Source of the DNA: a virus
Length of the DNA stretch: 33,180 bases
Virus record (IMG/VR): IMGVR_UViG_3300014497_000285
Coordinates: 1 to 33,180 of that record
Direction: 5' to 3' (one strand)
Below, piece by piece: positions 1 through 24,996 of the stretch. The notes under the pieces are model-generated. The model was not told the DNA's origin. It was given only the letters and a program-made list of their open reading frames with translations, and searched no databases. Numbering within the stretch: the stretch's first letter is position 1; each line of letters opens with the position of its first letter. The position numbers were made by a program, and so were the translations under genes.

Positions 1-1236
1 ATGATTTCGAAAATTAAGGGCGTAATTCTTAGCGTTGAAGACACTCTCGTACGTCAAGCAGGTGGCGAGGGGGTCCCTTCCGCGTTTGCAGAGGTTACAA
101 AGCTTATTCGCTTTCTACAACTTACTGGTATTGAATTCGTTGTTACGACAAATCGGCCATGGACTGTCGGGCCGGATAAGACGCCACTAAGGGAACGTCT
201 TCAGGAACGTTGGGGGCCGTTTCCCTATCTGAGCCTAGAAGACGATCCGAACATGCCGCCCCGGCCAAGGGCAGCGTTCACGGAATACATTCTGCAAAAG
301 ATGGGCTGGACTGATACGGAAACTGTGTACATCGGCTCCACGGAAAACGACATGCGAACGGCTGTGAATGGCGGGCTGCTTTTCCTCCGGGCTACATGGT
401 ATGCCGACCATCTTGACTACGGGTTCGACTTCGCTACACCAAAAGACATTGCCCGCTTTTTAGCTGTATTTTGCCGCCGCGAACACCTGTGGGGCTACCA
501 GATCGTTGACGGCGATTTCGAGTATTACGCCATCGCACCTTTCAGTACGATGAAAGAGGCGTTTGCCGCCTACTCGGCGGACGCGAGGTCAGCAGCAAAA
601 CATGGACTTGGACACTTCGATTTCTGGGTAGGCGCGTTAGTATCAAGCCTGTACTTCTCCGGTATCCACAAGCGAGTGGACTACATCGCCGGCTATCCTG
701 GTCACCAGAAAGCGTCTGGCAATGCGATGGATAGCGCCCTGGCGATCTTCGGAAAGTGCTTTCGCAGCCGCTTCCTTCCAGACCTTGTACAACGTCATAC
801 CACAGCGACCAAGATGCAGACGGCAAGGAACTCAGGGGTCATTGTCGGGCATAACATTCAGTTAGACACGATTAAGCTTAATCGCACGCCTCATAAGTCC
901 GCCACCGATGTCTACAAGGCTTCGCCGTTGGACAAGAAACGGAAGACTGTGCTCCTTATTGATGACATCTGCACACGCGGGTATTCGATGGAAGCGGCAC
1001 GTGCTTATCTCCAGCAGACAGGCACGAAAGTAATTATGGCGTCGTGGTTGAAGACGATCAACACCGACATAGAACGTCTTGGTGATTACAAGTTCGATCC
1101 TTATATAATAAACAACTTTGCTGCTGCGAACATAGCAAAGGTTTACCCATACAGGAACTATCTCACTAGTTTGCAGGCACCGACAGAACTAACCCGGATG
1201 TTGGAGAGCTACGTCACATGGGACTGGCCCGTATAG
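1..1236 (+). CDS. HAD-like / phosphoribosyltransferase fusion protein (putative cargo)
   Basis: The 411-residue protein has an N-terminal HAD-like half (about 1-155) and a C-terminal type I phosphoribosyltransferase half (about 200-370). The PRPP-binding loop is clear at 317-327 (VLLIDDICTRG, acidic pair D321-D322), and the preceding RHTTATKMQTAR stretch recalls ComF-type PRTases. In the HAD half the usual DxDGT motif reads SVEDT, so the nucleophile Asp is Ser11 and the acid Asp is Glu13. Motif II (VVTTN, T49/T50) is kept, and motif IV reads IGSTEND, with GD changed to GS but D117 kept. The HAD half therefore looks catalytically dead or altered. The gene is visibly less G+C-rich than the phage genes and converges on the late block at the end of the prophage, where P2-like phages often carry anti-phage cargo. 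Function is unknown: a nucleotide-linked defence or stress role is inference, and it could also be host flanking DNA. Confidence 0.75.
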   Translation: MISKIKGVILSVEDTLVRQAGGEGVPSAFAEVTKLIRFLQLTGIEFVVTTNRPWTVGPDKTPLRERLQERWGPFPYLSLEDDPNMPPRPRAAFTEYILQKMGWTDTETVYIGSTENDMRTAVNGGLLFLRATWYADHLDYGFDFATPKDIARFLAVFCRREHLWGYQIVDGDFEYYAIAPFSTMKEAFAAYSADARSAAKHGLGHFDFWVGALVSSLYFSGIHKRVDYIAGYPGHQKASGNAMDSALAIFGKCFRSRFLPDLVQRHTTATKMQTARNSGVIVGHNIQLDTIKLNRTPHKSATDVYKASPLDKKRKTVLLIDDICTRGYSMEAARAYLQQTGTKVIMASWLKTINTDIERLGDYKFDPYIINNFAAANIAKVYPYRNYLTSLQAPTELTRMLESYVTWDWPV

Positions 1237-1559: not shown

Positions 1560-1775
1560 TCATCCTGGGCGGCCGGCGCGGATCATCGCCGCTTGCTCCT
1601 TGTCGTAGTCGTCGCGGCAGTCTGCATTGCAGAACAGCAGTGCCGGCGCCAGCGCCTCGTCGCAGTAGTGGCAGCAGCCATGCGCCACCAGGGCGGGCCG
1701 GCGCCGCACGGCGGCCAGGCCGCGCGCCACCTCGGCAAAGATGATCTTGTCGGTGTTGTCGATATGGTCGCTCAT
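1560..1775 (-). CDS. small zinc-ribbon phage protein
   Basis: This 71-residue protein has a four-Cys metal-site pattern, CHYC followed about 13 residues later by CNADC, and a polar CRDDYDKEQ tail. Such small zinc proteins occur beside the portal gene in P2-like phages of high-GC hosts; a nucleic-acid-binding or regulatory role is only a guess. Its ATG overlaps the TGA of the portal gene (ATGA), so it is translationally coupled to Q and is the last gene of the leftward late operon before the terminator. Confidence 0.7.
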   Translation of the reverse strand: MSDHIDNTDKIIFAEVARGLAAVRRRPALVAHGCCHYCDEALAPALLFCNADCRDDYDKEQAAMIRAGRPG

Positions 1776-2833
1776 GCCGCGCCCTCCCCGCCCGTCGCCA
1801 GGTCATACGGCGCGAAGCGCACCACTTCCACGCCGGCCCACTCGTTGATCGCCATGAACTGCGCCTGCAGCGGCACCAGCTCGTTACGCGCGAAGACGCG
1901 AGCGGCCGGTTCCACGGCGCCGAAGCCGCCGGCATTGTTCGGCAGGATGCCCATGAGCTGCGGCGGCACGCGGTGCGCGGCCAGCTGGTCGTCGCGCGTG
2001 ACGCTCTTGATGTTGAAAAACTCGTCCTTGGCGGCCACATCCGACACCGGCAGAATCTGGATGCCGTCCTTCTTGCCGTTCGGCGCGTACATGAACAGGT
2101 TGCGGAAGTTGCCCGGCCCCTTGCTGTCGCGCATGGCCTGACGCAGGTTGTCCACGTCCTGTGTGTTGGCGGCGGCGTCCGTCATGTAGAACACGAAACC
2201 CGCGTGCGAGCCGTTCTTGTAATACTTGCGGCGGAACAGAGTAGCCGCCTCGTTGAGCCAGGCCGACTGCAGGGCGCTCAGGTATTGCGGCACGCCGTAC
2301 AACTCCTGGTTCACGTCCGGCTCCATCAGGTGGAACACGCGGCCCTTGTCGAACTGGTGCACGGCCTGGTAGCCGTTCACAAAATAATAGGTATCCAGAT
2401 CGACGCCGCGCCGCATGTACTTGGCCAGCGCATGCTGGTATGCCAGCGCCTTGCCGCTGCGGCTGGGCCGGTCTTCCAGGTAGGCATTGCCAAACGTCAG
2501 GAAGTCCAGGGCCATGCGTTTAAAAGCGTCGCGCGACAGGTACTTCGTTGGCATCAGGGTGGACGCCAGCACGTTGGCCTTGAAGTGGATGGCGCTGCTG
2601 TGGTGCACGCCGGCATTGAACGACTTGGCCAGGCCGGCCAGATTGACGGGCGGCTCGTACCAATGGCCGTTCTTCCAGCATTCGAAGCAGTCGAGAATGT
2701 CGGCGTGCTCCAGCACGGGCGTCGGGTCGCCGAAGGAAAACGCCTCGATGCCGGCGGCGGCCGGCGCCGTGGCCGCTGGTGGTGCGCTCTCGGCCTGCCG
2801 GCCGCGCGAGCGCAAGTGTCGTGCTTTGCTCAA
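1772..2833 (-). CDS. Q: portal protein (P2 gpQ-like)
   Basis: The product is the dodecameric portal of the capsid vertex, through which DNA is packaged and to which the tail joins. At 353 residues it is close to P2 gpQ (about 344). It has recognisable family stretches such as FGNAYLEDRPSRSG, HLMEPDVNQELYGVPQYL and RVPPQLMGILPNNAGGFG. I chose a TTG start at 2833 because it overlaps the terminase stop codon (TTGA) and is preceded by GGAGAT at normal spacing. A longer frame upstream only reads through terminase sequence. It lies between terminase P and the zinc-ribbon gene in one leftward operon. Confidence 0.93.
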   Translation of the reverse strand: MSKARHLRSRGRQAESAPPAATAPAAAGIEAFSFGDPTPVLEHADILDCFECWKNGHWYEPPVNLAGLAKSFNAGVHHSSAIHFKANVLASTLMPTKYLSRDAFKRMALDFLTFGNAYLEDRPSRSGKALAYQHALAKYMRRGVDLDTYYFVNGYQAVHQFDKGRVFHLMEPDVNQELYGVPQYLSALQSAWLNEAATLFRRKYYKNGSHAGFVFYMTDAAANTQDVDNLRQAMRDSKGPGNFRNLFMYAPNGKKDGIQILPVSDVAAKDEFFNIKSVTRDDQLAAHRVPPQLMGILPNNAGGFGAVEPAARVFARNELVPLQAQFMAINEWAGVEVVRFAPYDLATGGEGAA

Positions 2834-4641
2834 GAATAAATCTCCATGAAAGAGTGGTGGTTGTCGGTCGTGCCTTCGAATGGCTCGTGATCGAGGGCGT
2901 GCATGCAGGCCCACGCCAGGTCGGCGTGGCCGGTTTCATCGCTGCGGCCGGCGACATAGGTCACGTGCCGCCCGCTGGGGGTGAGGGTTTTATGGATGGC
3001 CATGAAGGACTGCGCAATGTCCGTCCAGCCGGCGTCAAACTCCAGCCGCCCCTTGCTGATGATGTTTTTGGCCTTCAAGACCATGCGGGTTTTGACTTCG
3101 GGCGAGTAGTTCAGGGCCGTGACGGCGGGGAAGAAGCCGCGCACGATGGGCAGCACGCCGATGCCCATGCCGGTGGTGTCGATGCCGATGTACTCAACGT
3201 TGTAGCGCTGGGTCATCTGGCGGATGGCGTCGGCGTGGTCTTCGAAACTCTGCCCGCGCCACTGGTGGCGCTCCAGGATGCGGAACTTGCCGCCGGCCGT
3301 CATGGGCGGCGCCAGCACCACGCAGCCGGCGCTGTCGCCGTTCAAGGCCGGGTCGTAGCCGATCCACACGGGCCGGTTGCCGAACGGGCGCAGGCCCAGC
3401 AAGGGCTTGTAGTCGTCCCACTCCACCCAGGAATCGACCATGCAGCGCTGCAGCTCGGCCAGCGGAAAGACCGAGGCCGAGTCGTCGATAAAATTGCACA
3501 TCAGCAGGTTGTCGAACTGGTCGGGGCTGTATTCGAAGTTGCGCAGCTCGTCGATGTCGAACAGGTTGCAGCCGCCGCGCTCGGCGTCCAGGATGGTGAC
3601 GATCTGGCGCCAGATCTTGTCCTCGCCCGTAAAACCCGACGAGAGGCGGCCATGGCTGACGTCGATGTTGACTTGATCCGCCTTGGCGCGGCGCTTGTTG
3701 AATAGCTCGCCCGTCCAGAACGGGTAAGCCTGGTGCGTGGTCGAGGATGGCGTGGAAAAGTAGGTCTTGCGCCACTTCTTGTGAATGGCCATGCCCGAGG
3801 CCACCTTGTTGAGTTCCTGGAAGTTCTGCGTCCAGAAGAATTCATCGAAATAGAAATTGCCGTGGTAGCCCTGCGCCGTGCGCGCGTTCGTGCCCAGGAA
3901 GTACAGGTGCGCACCGTTCGGCAGCACGATGGGGTCGCCCGTCAGCTCGATGCCGGCCGCTTCGCGCGCGAATTGCACGATGTATTGCTTGAAGACGTGG
4001 GCCTGGCTTTTTGAGGCCGACAGGAAAATCTGGTTGCGGCCCGTCGCCATGGCGTCGGCCAGCGCCTCGCGGGCGAAGTACCAGGTGGCGCCGATCTGGC
4101 GCGACTTCAAAATGGCGCGCGTGCGCTGGTCGCCGTTGCGATACCAGACCTTTTGATAGTCGAACAGCGAATCCTGAAAGGCGTCGAGCAGCTGGATTTT
4201 CTGTTCTTCGCTGAAGTCGTTGCGGGTCGGCTTCTTCTTCGGGCCGGCATTGCGGTTCGCCAGCTTGGGATTGAGGTCCACCTCGTTGCCACCCGGCTGC
4301 TCATAGCGACGCACGCGCGCCATCTGCACAATGGTGCGGGCGAGTAAATCGATTTCCTTGTAGTCGCTGCCGCTCTTGACCTCTTTTTCGATCAGTTTCA
4401 CCAGGCGCAGCTCGGCCGACGCCTCGACGTGCTCGATGGCCTGCGCCTTGTCCCACTCGTCGCGCTCTTTCCAGCTATTGATGGTGCTGCGCTTGATCCC
4501 CAGGTGGCGGGCGATGGACGAAATGCGCCAGCCCTTCCAGTACAGGGCGCGCGCGGCGCGGCGCGGCTCGGATTCAGGCACGGCCAATTCACCGATGATT
4601 TGGTCGGTGGTTTGTTCGCTTGTTTTCTCGATTGTCAGCAT
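2830..4641 (-). CDS. P: terminase large subunit, ATPase (P2 gpP-like)
   Basis: This is the packaging motor and cos-cleaving subunit, which acts with gpM and the portal. At 603 residues it matches P2 gpP (about 590). An N-terminal helix-turn-helix (about 45-75, including ISSIARHLGIKRSTINSW) is followed by the P2-type Walker A region SRQIGAT (180-186, after K179) and a Walker B FYFDEFFW with D266/E267. The C-terminal nuclease half includes IGYDPALNGDSAG and YIGIDTTGMG. I chose ATG 4641 because upstream sequence belongs to the divergent control region. It is transcribed divergently from O, as in P2, and its end overlaps Q. Confidence 0.95.
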   Translation of the reverse strand: MLTIEKTSEQTTDQIIGELAVPESEPRRAARALYWKGWRISSIARHLGIKRSTINSWKERDEWDKAQAIEHVEASAELRLVKLIEKEVKSGSDYKEIDLLARTIVQMARVRRYEQPGGNEVDLNPKLANRNAGPKKKPTRNDFSEEQKIQLLDAFQDSLFDYQKVWYRNGDQRTRAILKSRQIGATWYFAREALADAMATGRNQIFLSASKSQAHVFKQYIVQFAREAAGIELTGDPIVLPNGAHLYFLGTNARTAQGYHGNFYFDEFFWTQNFQELNKVASGMAIHKKWRKTYFSTPSSTTHQAYPFWTGELFNKRRAKADQVNIDVSHGRLSSGFTGEDKIWRQIVTILDAERGGCNLFDIDELRNFEYSPDQFDNLLMCNFIDDSASVFPLAELQRCMVDSWVEWDDYKPLLGLRPFGNRPVWIGYDPALNGDSAGCVVLAPPMTAGGKFRILERHQWRGQSFEDHADAIRQMTQRYNVEYIGIDTTGMGIGVLPIVRGFFPAVTALNYSPEVKTRMVLKAKNIISKGRLEFDAGWTDIAQSFMAIHKTLTPSGRHVTYVAGRSDETGHADLAWACMHALDHEPFEGTTDNHHSFMEIYS

Positions 4642-6632: not shown

Positions 6633-7348
6633 TGGCCAACCAATCCCCCGCCCTGCGCCACCGCGCGCGCATGCTGGCCGAGCGCACGGCTGGCGCCGCC
6701 GCGCCGCAGGGCGTCACCACCGGCACGGCCTACGAGCTGATGCTCTACAAGCTGTCCGACGACCGGCGGCGCCTGAAGTCCATCCAGTCCGTCGAACGCA
6801 AGATCGAGGTCAAGGCCACCTTGCTGCCCGACTATGCGCAATGGATCGACGGCGTGCTGGCCGGCGGCAAGGGCGCCCAGGATGACGTGTTTGCCACCTT
6901 GCTGGTGTGGCACATCGACACGGGCGAGTACGAGCGCGCCCTGGTCATGGCCGAATACGCGCTGGCGCACAAGTTCACCCTGCCAGATGGCTACAGCCGC
7001 GACATCGCCACCTTGATGCTGGACGAGTTTGCCGAAGGCTATTTGCACGGCAAGCTGGCCGCCGATCCGCAGCACGCGGCCCAGGTGCTGGGCACCGTCG
7101 AACAGTTGACGGCCGCCAGCGACGCGCCCGACCAGGCGCGCGCCAAGCTGCACAAGGCCATCGGTCTGGCCATGGTCGCCGTGCTGGACCAAAACGACGA
7201 TACCGACATCGCCCCGGCGCTGGTGGCCCAGGCGGAAAACGCCATGGCCCAGTTGAAGCGCGCCCGCGCCCTGTCGGAATCGTGCGGCGTCAAGAAAGAT
7301 ATGGAACGGCTGGAGCGGCGCATCAAGCGCGCGGCCGGTTCCACGTAA
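6632..7348 (+). CDS. M: terminase small subunit (P2 gpM-like)
   Basis: At 238 residues it is near P2 gpM (about 247). It is the DNA-recognition partner of the large terminase and binds around cos. The N terminus (SPALRHRARMLAERTAG) and central LLPDYAQWIDGVLAGGKGAQDDVFATLL stretch, here quoted only in part as LLPDYAQWIDGVL, are typical. The gene is coupled to N by a TAATG overlap and followed by L. Confidence 0.92.
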   Translation: MANQSPALRHRARMLAERTAGAAAPQGVTTGTAYELMLYKLSDDRRRLKSIQSVERKIEVKATLLPDYAQWIDGVLAGGKGAQDDVFATLLVWHIDTGEYERALVMAEYALAHKFTLPDGYSRDIATLMLDEFAEGYLHGKLAADPQHAAQVLGTVEQLTAASDAPDQARAKLHKAIGLAMVAVLDQNDDTDIAPALVAQAENAMAQLKRARALSESCGVKKDMERLERRIKRAAGST

Positions 7349-7404
7349 AGAGCATCCCCCGCAGCACGGCGGCACGGGGGGATTCTGGCCAAACCAGCGG
7401 CCTG

Positions 7405-7947
7405 ATGAACCCCGTCCACCGCCCACTTTTTGAAAGCGCCCCGTATGTCCTTCATGGCCCTGCCCCCGTCAACCCAGCCTGGCACCTCCCGGCGCCGCCG
7501 GCGCCTGCGCCTGGCGTCATCGAGAACGACGGCTGGTTTCCAGACATCCTGCTCACCGATATGCGCGACGCCATGCGGTTAGACGGCACCGTCACCGACG
7601 CGCGCCTGGTGCAAGCCGTGGTCGATGCCATCCTGCAGGTCAACCGCGAGCTGGCCGACTGGCAAGGCAAGCAGGCCGCCGCAGGTATCACCGCCCTGGT
7701 GAACGTGCCGGCCACGCGCATCAACCGCGAGTCCCGCTTGCTGGCGCAGTACCGGCGCGCCGTCTACAGCACGGCGAAGGCCGACCTGATCGAGCGTTAC
7801 CGCGACTACGACAGCACGGCCACGTCCGTCAGCGACAAGAAAAGCATGGAGTGGCTGGACGAGGCACCCGGCGCGCAGCGGCGCAATGCGCAATGGGCGA
7901 TTGCCGATATCGTCGGCCGCACGCATCTCACCGTGGAATTGATCTGA
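7405..7947 (+). CDS. L: head completion/stabilisation protein (P2 gpL-like)
   Basis: The product (180 residues from ATG 7405; P2 gpL is about 169) completes the head-tail connector after packaging. The core WFPDIL..DMRDAMRLDGTVT, VNVPATRINRESRLLAQYRRAV and LIERYRDYD follow the family. The start is uncertain because the first 40 residues are proline-rich and poorly conserved, and no strong ribosome site is seen. The stop codon overlaps the X start (TGATG). Confidence 0.88.
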   Translation: MNPVHRPLFESAPYVLHGPAPVNPAWHLPAPPAPAPGVIENDGWFPDILLTDMRDAMRLDGTVTDARLVQAVVDAILQVNRELADWQGKQAAAGITALVNVPATRINRESRLLAQYRRAVYSTAKADLIERYRDYDSTATSVSDKKSMEWLDEAPGAQRRNAQWAIADIVGRTHLTVELI

Positions 7948-8162
7948 TGCAGGTGCGCACGCGGCAGCACGACACGGTAGACGCCCTGGTGTGGCGCTAC
8001 CTGGGCGACGGCGCGGGATACGTCGAGCACACCCTGGAAATGAATCCCGCGCTGGCGCGCCACGGCGCCGTGCTGCCGGCCGGCCTGGTCGTCACCCTGC
8101 CCGAGCCGGCGCCCAGCACGGCCACCGTGGCCGCAGCCGATCTTGTGCGGCTATGGGACTAA
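7947..8162 (+). CDS. X: tail protein X, LysM-like (P2 gpX-like)
   Basis: This 71-residue protein (P2 gpX about 67) contains the small LysM-like fold of the tail X family: an N-terminal TRQHDTVDALVWRYLG followed by a segment ending PAGLVVTLPEPAP. It is required for tail assembly in P2. Its ATG overlaps the L stop codon. Confidence 0.9.
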   Translation: MQVRTRQHDTVDALVWRYLGDGAGYVEHTLEMNPALARHGAVLPAGLVVTLPEPAPSTATVAAADLVRLWD

Positions 8163-8209
8163 ATTTTTTAACAACACCTCTACTTATCCTCATCATGGAG
8201 AAACAAGCA

Positions 8210-8581
8210 ATGTCCGCAGAATCGTTTGGTGGTTTCGCCACCCTGGTCAAACTGTATGGCTTCAAGGCGGCGCTGGGCATGGTCGGCGCGGCCATGCTGT
8301 ACATCGTGCTGCCGCCGCTGAATAGCGACGGCACCTTCAACAAGGGCGAGTTCGTCGCCCGCCTGGCCTGCGCGGGCGTGTTCTCGTGCCTGCTGGGCGG
8401 CACCGTGTACCAGCTGCTGTGCGCCCAGCTCCCCGCCATCGGCGCCATGGTCAATGCCTCCGCCATCGACTTGATCGTGGGCGCACCTGGCTGGTGGGTA
8501 TCGCGCGCCGTGGCCCTGTGGTTCCAGCGCCGCAGCGACAAGGACATCGCCGAGCTGGTCAAAGACGCGAAGGAACATTGA
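8210..8581 (+). CDS. holin
   Basis: The 123-residue protein has three predicted membrane segments (about 16-34, 48-69 and 84-102) and a charged C terminus (RRSDKDIAELVKDAKEH), as expected for a holin that permeabilises the inner membrane to release the endolysin. I chose ATG 8210 because GGAG lies 8 bases upstream. It directly precedes the endolysin with an overlapping TGATG. The holin family is not one I can name with certainty. Confidence 0.8.
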   Translation: MSAESFGGFATLVKLYGFKAALGMVGAAMLYIVLPPLNSDGTFNKGEFVARLACAGVFSCLLGGTVYQLLCAQLPAIGAMVNASAIDLIVGAPGWWVSRAVALWFQRRSDKDIAELVKDAKEH

Positions 8582-9141
8582 TGGCCATCACTGACACCCA
8601 GTTGATCGCGCACGTCATCGACGCCATCTTGCGTTCCGAAGGCGGCTATGTGAACGACCCGCAAGACAAGGGCGGTGAAACCAACTTCGGCATCACCGTG
8701 GCCGTGGCCCGCGCCAACGGCTACGCGGGGCCGATGCGCGATCTGCCCGTGGCCGTGGCGCGCGCCATCTACACGGCCCGCTACATCACGGAACCGAAGT
8801 TCGACCAGGTGCTGGCCCTGCATGCCGGCATCGGCGCCGAAGTGATCGACACAGGCGTGAACATGGGGCCGCACCGCGCGGCCGAGTTCCTGCAGCGCTG
8901 GCTGAACGGTTTCAACGACACGGGGGCACGCTACCCCGCCCTGTTCGTCGACGGCCGCCTGGGCGCGCAGTCGCTGGGTGCGCTGGCCGCCTTCCTGAAA
9001 TGGCGCGGCCAGGACGGCGCCGCCGTGCTGCTGCGCGCCCTGAACGGCCTGCAGGCGGCGCGCTACCTGGAAATCACCGAGGCAAACAAGAGCCAGCGCC
9101 GCTTTCTGTTCGGCTGGATCAAGGAACGGGTGGCCATGTGA
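8581..9141 (+). CDS. endolysin, glycoside hydrolase family 108 type
   Basis: This 186-residue muralytic enzyme has the family signature SEGGYVNDPQDKGGETNFGI near the N terminus. E20 of the EGGY motif is the expected catalytic acid, and a C-terminal peptidoglycan-binding part follows (about 90-186, including FVDGRLGAQSLGAL). No signal peptide is evident, so export should depend on the holin. It replaces the unrelated lysozyme-like gpK of P2. The gene is coupled at both ends, to the holin and to Rz. Confidence 0.9.
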   Translation: MAITDTQLIAHVIDAILRSEGGYVNDPQDKGGETNFGITVAVARANGYAGPMRDLPVAVARAIYTARYITEPKFDQVLALHAGIGAEVIDTGVNMGPHRAAEFLQRWLNGFNDTGARYPALFVDGRLGAQSLGALAAFLKWRGQDGAAVLLRALNGLQAARYLEITEANKSQRRFLFGWIKERVAM

Positions 9142-9650
9142 CCGCGACCACCTGGCGCCCGCTGGCCGCTGTTCTCCTGTGCGGCGCCCTGGTCGGCTGG
9201 ACGGCGCAGGGCTGGCGCAAGGACGCGGCCATCGCCGCACTGCAGCGGGCGGCGGCTATCCAAACATCCAGCGCCGCCAGCGCGCTGGCCCAGGCCACCG
9301 CCCGCGTGCTCACCTTGGAGCGCGCCGCCGGCGCCGCCCTGGCGCAGCGCGCCGACCACCTCACCCAGGAGCAAACCCATGCGAAAACTGAGCGTGACCG
9401 TTTCAGCCTTGATGTGCGCAGCGGCGCTGTGCGCCTGTCAATCCCCGTTGCCAGCGGCCAGTGCGCCACCACTGCAGATTCCACCGCTGCCGCAAGCGAT
9501 CAGCACCAAGCGCGCGCCGAACTTGACCCGGCGACTGCGGCAGCTCTTGACGCCATTGCCGGCGACGGCGACAACGCCACCCGCCAACTGAACGCCTGCA
9601 TCGACGCCTACAACCTGATCCGAGACACCTACCATGTACAAACCGAATAG
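9138..9650 (+). CDS. inner-membrane spanin (Rz-like)
   Basis: This 170-residue protein has an N-terminal membrane anchor (about 6-24, LAAVLLCGALVGWTAQG) followed by a long alanine- and charge-rich helical periplasmic region, the architecture of an i-spanin (Rz) that spans the periplasm and fuses inner and outer membranes. A GTG start overlaps the endolysin stop (GTGA), indicating coupling. It contains the complete Rz1 gene in another frame and overlaps the start of R by 17 bases. Confidence 0.8.
   Translation: MTATTWRPLAAVLLCGALVGWTAQGWRKDAAIAALQRAAAIQTSSAASALAQATARVLTLERAAGAALAQRADHLTQEQTHAKTERDRFSLDVRSGAVRLSIPVASGQCATTADSTAAASDQHQARAELDPATAAALDAIAGDGDNATRQLNACIDAYNLIRDTYHVQTE
9379..9591 (+). 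CDS. outer-membrane lipoprotein spanin (Rz1-like), nested in Rz
   Basis: This 70-residue reading frame lies wholly inside Rz in the +1 frame. It begins MRKLSVTVSALMCAAALCAC, a lipoprotein signal with a lipobox ending at Cys20 (LCAC), and continues as a proline-rich mature peptide (SPLPAASAPPLQIPPLPQ). Nested Rz/Rz1 pairs are the classic two-component spanin arrangement, and P2 has the same in lysB/lysC. Confidence 0.85.
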   Translation: MRKLSVTVSALMCAAALCACQSPLPAASAPPLQIPPLPQAISTKRAPNLTRRLRQLLTPLPATATTPPAN

Positions 9651-10699: not shown

Positions 10700-11536
10700 A
10701 TGCAAAAATTTTCAGATAGATATGGTTATACATCATCAGAAAAGGCTTTTCAGCGAGAATCTGTAGATGTTGCACTACGTACCAAGATTTGGAATATATT
10801 GAAAGTGGAAATTTGGGATAATTATGATTATGGAAAAAGAAATTATCACGGGATAACGAGCAACATCGACAAATTAGCCAAACGTCTATGGTTTAGCTAT
10901 TTCAATAAAGATTTAGACGATCTCCCTGACTTTTCCGAGCGGTATGGAAAAAATGGTTATTACGACATATTCAAAAATTATTTCTACAACTGCAAATGGT
11001 TTGAGTTTTACAACTTCCTAGAAGAAATCGCAAACGACGGCAGTAATTTGATTTCTGATAGTACAAAAACATGGATCAACAATACATTAGAAAATCTCAA
11101 TTCTGCATATAGATTCGTTGGTAAAAATATTGCTGAAATTACTGACAAAACTGAAATAGAGTGCATTGATGATGCCATTACCATTTCAGAAAAGTCCGCC
11201 CGCACTCATTTAAGTGTAGCTCTTCGTATGCTTAGTGATAGAGAAAATCCTGACTATCGAAATTCAGTAAAGGAATCTATCTCCGCAGTAGAAGCGACGT
11301 GCAGGCTTGTAACGGGAAATCCTTCAGCAACACTAGGCGAAGCGCTAAAAAAAGTCCAAAACCTTCATCCCGCTATGTCGCGTGCTTTTGCACAACTCTA
11401 TGGCTATACAAACGACTCGTCCGGCATTCGCCACTCCTTAACAGATGAAGCGACCATTAGTTATGCTGATGCAAAATTCATGTTGGTTACGTGCTCAGCG
11501 TTCGTATCATATTTAAAAACAACTGCAACACAATAA
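10700..11536 (+). CDS. AbiJ-type abortive-infection protein (putative phage-defence cargo)
   Basis: The 278-residue protein has two parts. The N-terminal part (about 1-120, beginning FSDRYGYTSSEKAFQRESVD, then LRTKIWNIL) matches the AbiJ N-terminal domain 4 pattern. The C-terminal part (about 185-275) has SISAVEATCRLVTG, LGEALKKVQNLHPAM and SGIRHSLTDE, with R244-H245 as a HEPN-like conserved pair. Such proteins are associated with abortive infection; RNase activity is an inference from HEPN relatives. A weak AGGA lies upstream of the ATG. The gene is about 37% G+C in the line I counted, against clearly higher in neighbours, and sits inside the late tail operon, so it was acquired horizontally. 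The 113 upstream bases are AT-rich and probably carry its own promoter, but I cannot pick out one convincing -35/-10 pair. Confidence 0.75.
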   Translation: MQKFSDRYGYTSSEKAFQRESVDVALRTKIWNILKVEIWDNYDYGKRNYHGITSNIDKLAKRLWFSYFNKDLDDLPDFSERYGKNGYYDIFKNYFYNCKWFEFYNFLEEIANDGSNLISDSTKTWINNTLENLNSAYRFVGKNIAEITDKTEIECIDDAITISEKSARTHLSVALRMLSDRENPDYRNSVKESISAVEATCRLVTGNPSATLGEALKKVQNLHPAMSRAFAQLYGYTNDSSGIRHSLTDEATISYADAKFMLVTCSAFVSYLKTTATQ

Positions 11537-11628: not shown

Positions 11629-12618
11629 TTGAAAAATATGACATCACCCACTATCGATTGGAATTGGTTTTTTAGCTCACTTGCTCAGTCCGCTGCTGCA
11701 ATTGTTGGAATTTTTGGCGCCTTCATCATTACGAAAATATTATCTAATCAAGGGATATTTTCCGATAAGAACATAAAAATAAAAGAACTAATAGCAGACG
11801 GAGAAAAAATATCAGATCAAGCGCTCGGCAGATATTTTGAGTGGTACAACACAAATTTCAATAAAAATTCCATCTACCAAGCAGAAAATTTACTTATAAA
11901 AGATCCAAATATTAAGGCTGAAGAAATATTAAAAGAAATAAATTTCTCCCCATTCACAAAATATGAAGAAGCCTTAGAAGAAATCAACGATCTAATCAGC
12001 AAAAAAAATGAACAACTAGACTTGAACGATAAAAGAATTAAGTCCCACCTAGCTGCCGAACGAGCACGTTTGGACAGAGAAGGAAAGACGCATTATGCGG
12101 CAGCCATGCTAAACTCACCACTAGCGCGTCTTACATCATTTCCTAATTTAGACATAGGACCTCAACTTATAGAGGAGCGCGAATTCATTGACAAAGTTTT
12201 CCGTGATGCACGACATCACTCCCGCGTAGTAAGCAATTTTCATCAGACGATATCCAACAATCCAGAATCATCTACTGCCATATCATACTCACTGATAATG
12301 GTTGGAATTCTTTTCTTACTAGGGGTAATCTATCCTCTTAGCTTCTTACCGGCACCAGTTCCTAGCACACCTGAATTATCTATAGCCGGGTCCTTTGAAT
12401 TCATAACCTCAATTCGCGGAATACTTCTATCGCTAGTAAGTATAATATTCGGAATAATTCTTATAATGTTTTTTACAATGAATTTTCGCATGAAATATTC
12501 CCAAAAAAACATAGAAGAATTATTAAAATTTTCCCTACCTAAAAACTACTCCACATACTTAGATATACTTGAAGAAAACATAATAATAAAAAAAGAAAAA
12601 ACAAAAACTCACAATTAA
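11629..12618 (+). CDS. membrane protein of unknown function (island gene 2)
   Basis: This 329-residue protein (TTG start at 11629; ATG at 11638 is the alternative) has an N-terminal hydrophobic segment, FFSSLAQSAAAIVGIFGAFI (14-33), then a charged, largely helical region of about 180 residues, and two further membrane segments (about 220-241 and 265-285) before a lysine-rich tail. The N-terminal motif recurs, as I remember, in uncharacterised bacterial membrane proteins, but I know no function. A GGA eight bases before TTG is the only ribosome-site candidate. The gene is strongly AT-rich like the AbiJ-type gene before it. A membrane effector in a defence pair is possible but unproven. Confidence 0.7.
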   Translation: MKNMTSPTIDWNWFFSSLAQSAAAIVGIFGAFIITKILSNQGIFSDKNIKIKELIADGEKISDQALGRYFEWYNTNFNKNSIYQAENLLIKDPNIKAEEILKEINFSPFTKYEEALEEINDLISKKNEQLDLNDKRIKSHLAAERARLDREGKTHYAAAMLNSPLARLTSFPNLDIGPQLIEEREFIDKVFRDARHHSRVVSNFHQTISNNPESSTAISYSLIMVGILFLLGVIYPLSFLPAPVPSTPELSIAGSFEFITSIRGILLSLVSIIFGIILIMFFTMNFRMKYSQKNIEELLKFSLPKNYSTYLDILEENIIIKKEKTKTHN

Positions 12619-24690: not shown

Positions 24691-24996
24691 CTACTCAGAA
24701 AGAACTTTTCCTGTGCCGACGATCTTCGCGCCCTCTAATACTTCGAATACTACCCCAGGAATGAGGGGCGAATAGTCTACACTGGACTGATAAACAAGGA
24801 CTGCCTCCGCGTTCGCGGCGGTTCCAGGCATAACACCGCCTAGGGGGCCATTCAACAGCACGACTCCCAAATAATCACCCTGAGCGACACGAAGGTGTGG
24901 ACGATAAATGCCCGAACAAAGGTCAGTCGCAGTTGCGCGGCCACCATCCTGAGGGGCTTTAAAGTCAATCTGAACCCGAACGCTGTGCTTTTTCAT
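24691..24996 (-). CDS. stand-alone EF-Tu domain III-like protein
   Basis: The 101-residue protein resembles the C-terminal beta-barrel (domain III) of elongation factor Tu, without the GTPase domain. Landmarks align in order: VRVQIDFKAPQDGGR, with EF-Tu-like GGR; GIYRPHLRV, as in EF-Tu GYRPQFYFR; VMPGTAANAEAVLV, as in VMPGDN; then PLIPGVVFEVLEGAKIVGTG, as in EEGLRFAIREGGRTVGAG. I chose ATG 24996 because GGAAAG precedes it and the longer frame would translate the repeated intergenic element. Domain III in EF-Tu contacts tRNA and EF-Ts. A decoy or regulator of EF-Tu, which is a target in several phage-exclusion systems, is conceivable but unproven. Confidence 0.7.
   Translation of the reverse strand: MKKHSVRVQIDFKAPQDGGRATATDLCSGIYRPHLRVAQGDYLGVVLLNGPLGGVMPGTAANAEAVLVYQSSVDYSPLIPGVVFEVLEGAKIVGTGKVLSE

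What the first reader, a model, noticed from the sequence alone, without database searches (positions are those of the whole stretch)
1..1236. HAD-phosphoribosyltransferase fusion with substituted HAD nucleophile
The PRPP loop is intact (VLLIDDICTRG), but in the HAD half the nucleophile Asp is Ser11, the acid Asp is Glu13 and motif IV GD is GS. A pseudo-HAD fused to a PRTase suggests binding or sensing of a phosphorylated ligand coupled to nucleotide chemistry. Its lower G+C and its place next to the portal block fit a moron or defence gene; PRTases occur as accessory proteins in some defence systems such as certain retrons.
Basis: partly seen in the sequence, partly recalled or inferred. Interest (0 to 1): 0.65.

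Follow-up and report, generated by a model that had tools for sequence, protein, structure and literature searches.

The report
ShosT toxin of a prophage-borne ShosTA system
The odd fusion protein at the left end of this prophage is ShosT, the toxin half of a known bacterial anti-phage defence system (ShosTA), whose partner gene was cut off by the edge of the record; its 'dead' phosphatase half is a feature of the whole family, so the find is real but largely ordinary.

Summary
Window 1-1236 encodes a 411-residue protein with a HAD-like N-terminal half and a PRTase C-terminal half. The HAD nucleophile is Ser11, the acid is Glu13 and motif IV reads GS; the PRPP loop is intact. It is not a new fusion. 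It is ShosT, the toxin of the ShosTA toxin-antitoxin anti-phage system: PADLOC ShosT 263 bits, and full-length matches to solved ShosT structures by sequence (E 1e-74) and by fold (TM 0.87 to 8zvc, ShosT with PRPP-Mg). The DprA-like antitoxin gene shosA is most likely absent only because the record starts at the shosT ATG. In a relative 96% identical over the first 1.7 kb of DNA, and in Janthinobacterium sp. GW456P, shosA lies immediately upstream with an ATGA overlap. In GW456P shosTA lies inside the prophage, between a tRNA-Gly att repeat and portal gene Q, matching the known gpA-gpQ defence hotspot of P2-like phages. In 21 distinct homologues the nucleophile is never Asp (Ser 20, Gly 1). 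The acid and first motif IV Asp positions vary freely, while motif II Asn, motif III Lys/Arg and the second motif IV Asp are kept. So the pseudo-HAD is family-wide: no canonical HAD chemistry is expected, but ligand binding remains possible.

The parts
1..1236 (+). shosT, 411 aa toxin: pseudo-HAD domain (about residues 4-145) plus PRTase domain (about residues 165-411); domain limits approximate
   Evidence: PADLOC PDLC03012 ShosT 263 bits, residues 29-410; phmmer to PDB ShosT E 1e-74 over 6-410; Foldseek 8zvc TMq 0.87
1..4 (+). ATGA: start codon of shosT, and by homology the stop codon (TGA, bases 2-4) of the upstream shosA that is cut off by the record edge
   Evidence: In L021 shosA ends at 2284 and shosT starts at 2281; in L002 shosA ends at 8004 and shosT starts at 8001
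22..51 (+). degenerate HAD motif I (residues 8-17, VILSVEDTLV; Ser11 and Glu13 in place of the two Asp)
148..153 (+). HAD motif II, Thr50-Asn51, retained
   Evidence: Asn51 in 21/21, Thr/Ser50 in 20/21 homologues
262..264 (+). HAD motif III basic residue (Arg88; Lys in most homologues), retained
   Evidence: Lys 17, Arg 4 of 21
328..351 (+). HAD motif IV (residues 110-117, YIGSTEND): first Asp replaced by Ser113, second Asp117 kept
   Evidence: Asp113 absent in 21/21, Asp117 present in 21/21
949..981 (+). PRPP-binding loop VLLIDDICTRG (residues 317-327)
   Evidence: D321, D322, T325, G327 invariant in 21/21
1772..2914 (-). P2-like portal gene Q (ORF as listed; the true start may lie further in), convergent with shosT: one border of the hotspot
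   Evidence: phrog_68 portal protein 526 bits
28655..30493 (+). P2-like replication gene A: the other border of the gpA-gpQ hotspot on the circular map
   Evidence: Pfam Phage_GPA 256 bits
31999..33180 (-). tyrosine integrase; the record ends exactly at its start codon, so both ends of the record are gene boundaries
   Evidence: Pfam Arm-DNA-bind_3, Phage_int_M, Phage_integrase; sequence end ...GGCCAT

Best explanation
The gene is shosT, the toxin of a ShosTA toxin-antitoxin/abortive-infection module carried as an accessory defence cassette in the gpA-gpQ hotspot of a P2-like prophage, very probably of a Janthinobacterium-like host. The antitoxin shosA (DprA-like) lies directly upstream in the same operon, outside the record. 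Shown here: the family, the domain architecture, the intact PRPP loop, the family-wide loss of the HAD nucleophile, the shosA-shosT operon in close relatives, and its place inside the prophage in one of them. Taken from the literature: DprA+PRTase from this hotspot protects against T7 and lambda; ShosT uses PRPP chemistry to disturb purine nucleotide pools, giving DNA damage, filamentation and death; ShosA binds DNA and counteracts this, probably through homologous recombination. Inferred: the same holds for this copy, and the HAD half does no HAD hydrolysis but serves as a structural or ligand-binding part, so any pyrophosphatase activity reported for ShosT is most easily placed in the PRTase site.
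For: PADLOC ShosT 263 and 178 bits. PDB sequence matches to ShosT 8zvb, 9w2p, 9w2q at E 1e-74. Foldseek top three hits are ShosT 8zvc (PRPP-Mg), 8zvb and 8zvd, TMq 0.83-0.87. Upstream ORF in relatives is ShosA (PADLOC 286 bits; Pfam DNA_processg_A 190 bits; PDB ShosA 9vzo and 8zva E 1e-68). Every intact homologue with enough upstream sequence has a DprA-like gene directly upstream. Prophage att repeats in Janthinobacterium sp. GW456P enclose shosTA. The hotspot and phage protection by DprA+PRTase are described in PMC9122126; the mechanism as summarised in PMC12593503.
Against: shosA itself is not in the window, so an orphan shosT in this very genome is not excluded. Sequence identity to the tested E. 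coli-type ShosT is 36-59%, and no activity was tested. The primary mechanism paper (Pu et al. 2025) was not held, so the mechanism rests on a review's summary.
Confidence: 0.93

Rival explanations
1. An orphan or degenerate shosT: the toxin gene remains in the prophage without its antitoxin and is inactive, or does something else.
For: No shosA is in the record.
Against: The record is cut exactly at the shosT start codon. L022, another IMG/VR provirus record, is cut at the same place, while L002, the Janthinobacterium sp. GW456P contig with the same 92% identity to the query, has intact shosA there. The window begins ATGA, as the overlap requires. All catalytic PRTase residues are intact.
Confidence: 0.04
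2. A PRTase effector of another defence type (retron-associated PRTase, PsyrTA/RqlHI).
For: PRTases occur in retrons (stated in PMC9122126). PADLOC PsyrT gives a weak match over the PRPP loop only (14.6 bits).
Against: The ShosT model scores 263 bits over the full length. The ShosA model beats PsyrA (286 against 72 bits). The relatives' upstream gene is a DprA, not a reverse transcriptase.
Confidence: 0.02
3. A host nucleotide-salvage or competence gene picked up at the prophage edge.
For: It stands at the edge of the record, and its partner is related to competence protein DprA.
Against: In GW456P the operon lies between the 47-bp att repeats, inside the prophage. About 1.1 kb (the last ~140 bp before shosA plus shosA) is shared between two prophages whose outer flanks share no detectable similarity there. 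The family is sporadic: full-length matches in 1 of 394 genomes of the family sample and 2 of 398 of the phylum sample, G001 counted in both.
Confidence: 0.01

Closest known systems
ShosT of E. coli (PDB 8zvb, 8zvc, 8zvd, 9w2p, 9w2q); near-identical in family to phage P24C9 and 10W genes
   Same: Full-length homology (36% identity to the P24C9 gene), same two-domain fold, Ser at the HAD nucleophile position, DDxCTxG PRPP loop, DprA-like partner directly upstream
   Different: Acid position is Glu13 here and Ala in the E. coli structure sequence; motif IV GS here, GR there; host and phage lineage differ
ShosTA of a P4-like satellite in E. coli PSJ-36 and of a Pseudomonas fragi plasmid
   Same: 59-61% identity, SVED/SIED motif I as in the window, DprA-like gene upstream
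   Different: Carried by a satellite and by a plasmid instead of a P2-like prophage
PsyrTA / RqlHI (DprA-like antitoxin with PRTase-containing toxin)
   Same: DprA-like partner and a C-terminal PRTase loop
   Different: Only a short weak match to PsyrT (14.6 bits); ShosA scores far above PsyrA

Membership tests
ShosT (toxin of ShosTA) | Full-length match to the ShosT profile | tested here: met
   PDLC03012, 263 bits, residues 29-410 to profile 34-426 of 427
ShosT (toxin of ShosTA) | HAD-like plus PRTase two-domain fold as in solved ShosT | tested here: met
   Foldseek 8zvc TMq 0.87, TMt 0.84
ShosT (toxin of ShosTA) | Intact PRPP-binding loop | tested here: met
   D321, D322, T325, G327 shared by 21/21 homologues
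ShosTA system | DprA-like ShosA gene directly upstream in the same operon | tested here: inconclusive
   Outside the record for the window itself; present in two close relatives with ATGA overlap and in every intact homologue with enough upstream sequence
ShosTA system | Toxicity of ShosT neutralised by ShosA; phage protection | not testable with these tools
   Literature only, for other members (PMC9122126, PMC12593503)
Catalytic HAD phosphatase | DxD nucleophile/acid pair in motif I | tested here: not met
   Ser11/Glu13; no Asp at the nucleophile position in 21 homologues
P2-like gpA-gpQ defence hotspot | Lies between replication gene A and portal gene Q of a P2-like phage | tested here: met
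   Directly next to Q in the window. In GW456P the order is att, int, A ... Q, shosT, shosA, att, which puts shosTA in the A-Q interval of the circular map
Retron accessory PRTase | Reverse transcriptase and msr-msd next to the PRTase | tested here: not met
   Upstream gene in the close relatives is DprA-like; no RT found in the ORFs examined around it; no RNA-family search was run

The most novel reading that the evidence does not exclude
The pseudo-HAD of ShosT is a conserved, catalytically dead ligand-binding site that gates the PRTase, for example by sensing a phosphorylated nucleotide or sugar made during phage takeover. Retention of Ser11, Thr/Ser50-Asn51, Lys/Arg88 and Asp117, with free variation exactly at the two lost Asp positions, fits this.
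Probability: 0.25. Interest if true: 0.45.

Novelty: new member of a known kind. Interest (0 to 1): 0.2.

Why it matters
It places ShosTA in P2-like prophages of Janthinobacterium-type hosts, at the hotspot known from E. coli. It shows that the HAD nucleophile is missing across the sampled family, which bears on which active site does the chemistry attributed to ShosT. It also warns that provirus records trimmed at gene boundaries can split a toxin from its antitoxin and make a known defence operon look like a strange single gene.

Tried and rejected
Retron accessory PRTase: rejected, the partner gene is DprA-like. Salvage or competence host gene: rejected, the operon lies inside the att repeats of a relative. 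ARAGORN on L002 and L021 found no tRNA, but the attR side of GW456P gave tRNA-Gly(CCC). For relative G002 no long att repeat was found; a tRNA-Ser lies near its integrase end. Most genome-contig hits (L003-L020, cyanobacteria, 40-61% over 23-37 residues) are short local matches and were set aside. A first search for 'ShosTA' without whole-word matching returned unrelated names. The primary paper on the mechanism (Pu et al. 2025, doi 10.1038/s41467-025-58540-9) is not held.

Full report
Observation. Window 1-1236 (+) is an open reading frame of 411 codons that starts at the first base of the record. The N-terminal half carries VILSVEDTLV at the place of HAD motif I (Ser11 for the nucleophile Asp, Glu13 for the acid) and YIGSTEND at motif IV (Ser113 for the first Asp). 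The C-terminal half carries the PRPP loop VLLIDDICTRG. Pfam sees both halves only weakly. G+C is 51.6% against 60.5% for the window.

Identity. PADLOC names the protein ShosT (263 bits over residues 29-410); PHROG 10564, of unknown function, matches the same stretch. By sequence the only strong PDB matches are ShosT entries 8zvb/8zvc/8zvd, 9w2p and 9w2q (E about 1e-74). A model made from 13 aligned relatives (mean pLDDT 80.6, pTM 0.84) finds as its top three PDB folds ShosT with PRPP-Mg (8zvc, TMq 0.87), ShosT (8zvb) and ShosT with phosphate (8zvd), followed by HAD phosphatases with partial-length matches.

The missing partner. ShosT works with ShosA, a DprA-like antitoxin. The record begins exactly at the shosT ATG and ends exactly at the integrase start codon, so it was evidently trimmed at gene boundaries. 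Two close relatives show what lies outside. In L021 (IMG/VR record, 96% DNA identity over 1.7 kb) shosA occupies 1298-2284 and shosT 2281-3516. In L002 (Janthinobacterium sp. GW456P, 92% protein identity) shosA is at 7018-8004 and shosT at 8001-9236. These ORFs are ShosA by PADLOC (286 bits), Pfam DNA_processg_A (190 bits) and PDB 9vzo/8zva. The window's first four bases, ATGA, are what the overlap requires. Among all homologues collected, each intact gene with enough upstream sequence has a DprA-like gene directly upstream. L022, another IMG/VR provirus record with the same 92% identity as GW456P, shows the same cut between the two genes.

Place in the prophage. The window is a P2-like prophage: portal, terminase, scaffold and capsid genes, GpR, GPD and GPA, and a tyrosine integrase. 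In GW456P a 47-bp direct repeat, the 3' end of tRNA-Gly(CCC), flanks the prophage at contig positions 24791 and 59987. ShosTA lies inside it, between the att repeat and gene Q, with integrase and gene A at the other end. On the circular map this is the interval between gpA and gpQ, which PMC9122126 describes as a defence hotspot of P2-like phages and in which it tested a DprA+PRTase pair that protected E. coli against T7 and lambda.

The pseudo-HAD. In 21 distinct homologues, from P2-like phages, plasmids, a P4-like satellite and chromosomes, the nucleophile position is Ser in 20 and Gly in 1, never Asp. The acid position is Arg 7, Glu 6, Ala 6, Asp 1, Lys 1. The first motif IV Asp is absent in all (Arg, Ser, Ala or Asn). 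Other pocket positions are kept: Asn51 21/21, Thr/Ser50 20/21, Lys/Arg88 21/21, Gly112 21/21, Asp117 21/21, and PRPP-loop D321, D322, T325, G327 21/21. Among 14 representatives below 80% identity, the two positions of the lost acidic residues are about average in variability for the domain, while the kept ones are among its most conserved. The loss is therefore ancestral to the sampled family and not particular to this protein. Inference: no aspartyl-phosphate chemistry, but a pocket that may still hold a phosphate group, or a structural role.

Mechanism. According to a review (PMC12593503, citing Pu et al. 2025, which is not held), ShosT acts as phosphoribosyltransferase and pyrophosphatase, disturbs purine pools and causes DNA duplications, filamentation and death; ShosA binds DNA and promotes recombination; T7 Gp0.7 triggers the system. 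PMC10732053 groups ShosTA with systems activated by phage single-stranded-DNA-binding protein. These statements concern other members and were not tested here. If the pyrophosphatase activity is real, the absence of the HAD nucleophile throughout the family makes the PRTase site the simpler place for it (inference).

Verdict. A correctly read but known protein: a new member of the ShosT family in a P2-like prophage of a Janthinobacterium-like host. The only open point of interest is what the conserved pseudo-HAD pocket does.

Noticed in passing
window 10700-11536 (+), in the low-G+C island of about 10.6-12.7 kb: A second candidate defence gene inside the tail block: PADLOC PDC-S32 (328 bits) and Pfam AbiJ_NTD4 (94 bits). 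The next ORF, 11629-12618 (329 aa, TTG start), has no match in Pfam, PADLOC or PHROGs.
   Followed up: partly
L040 4378-5289 and L041 4392-5303: On Rhizobiaceae plasmids shosTA is followed by a convergent pair: a hypothetical gene and a second DprA-like gene.
   Followed up: no
L028 3-1304 and 1360-2565 (-): Two neighbouring genes, both distant ShosT/PsyrT-like PRTases; the upstream one (1360-2565) gives 158 bits to the short ShosT model. Possibly a related two-PRTase system.
   Followed up: no
L038 1769-2233 and 2382-2996: In Bermanella marisrubri the HAD and PRTase halves of ShosT are annotated as two separate genes downstream of dprA; a broken or split shosT.
   Followed up: no
L021 1-765: A DUF4145 protein with a zinc-ribbon-like N-terminus stands upstream of shosA in the closest relative, outside the stretch shared with GW456P.
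   Followed up: no
L043 2705-4925: A P4-like satellite in E. coli PSJ-36 carries a ShosTA 59% identical to the window's, next to psu and ogr/delta genes.
   Followed up: partly
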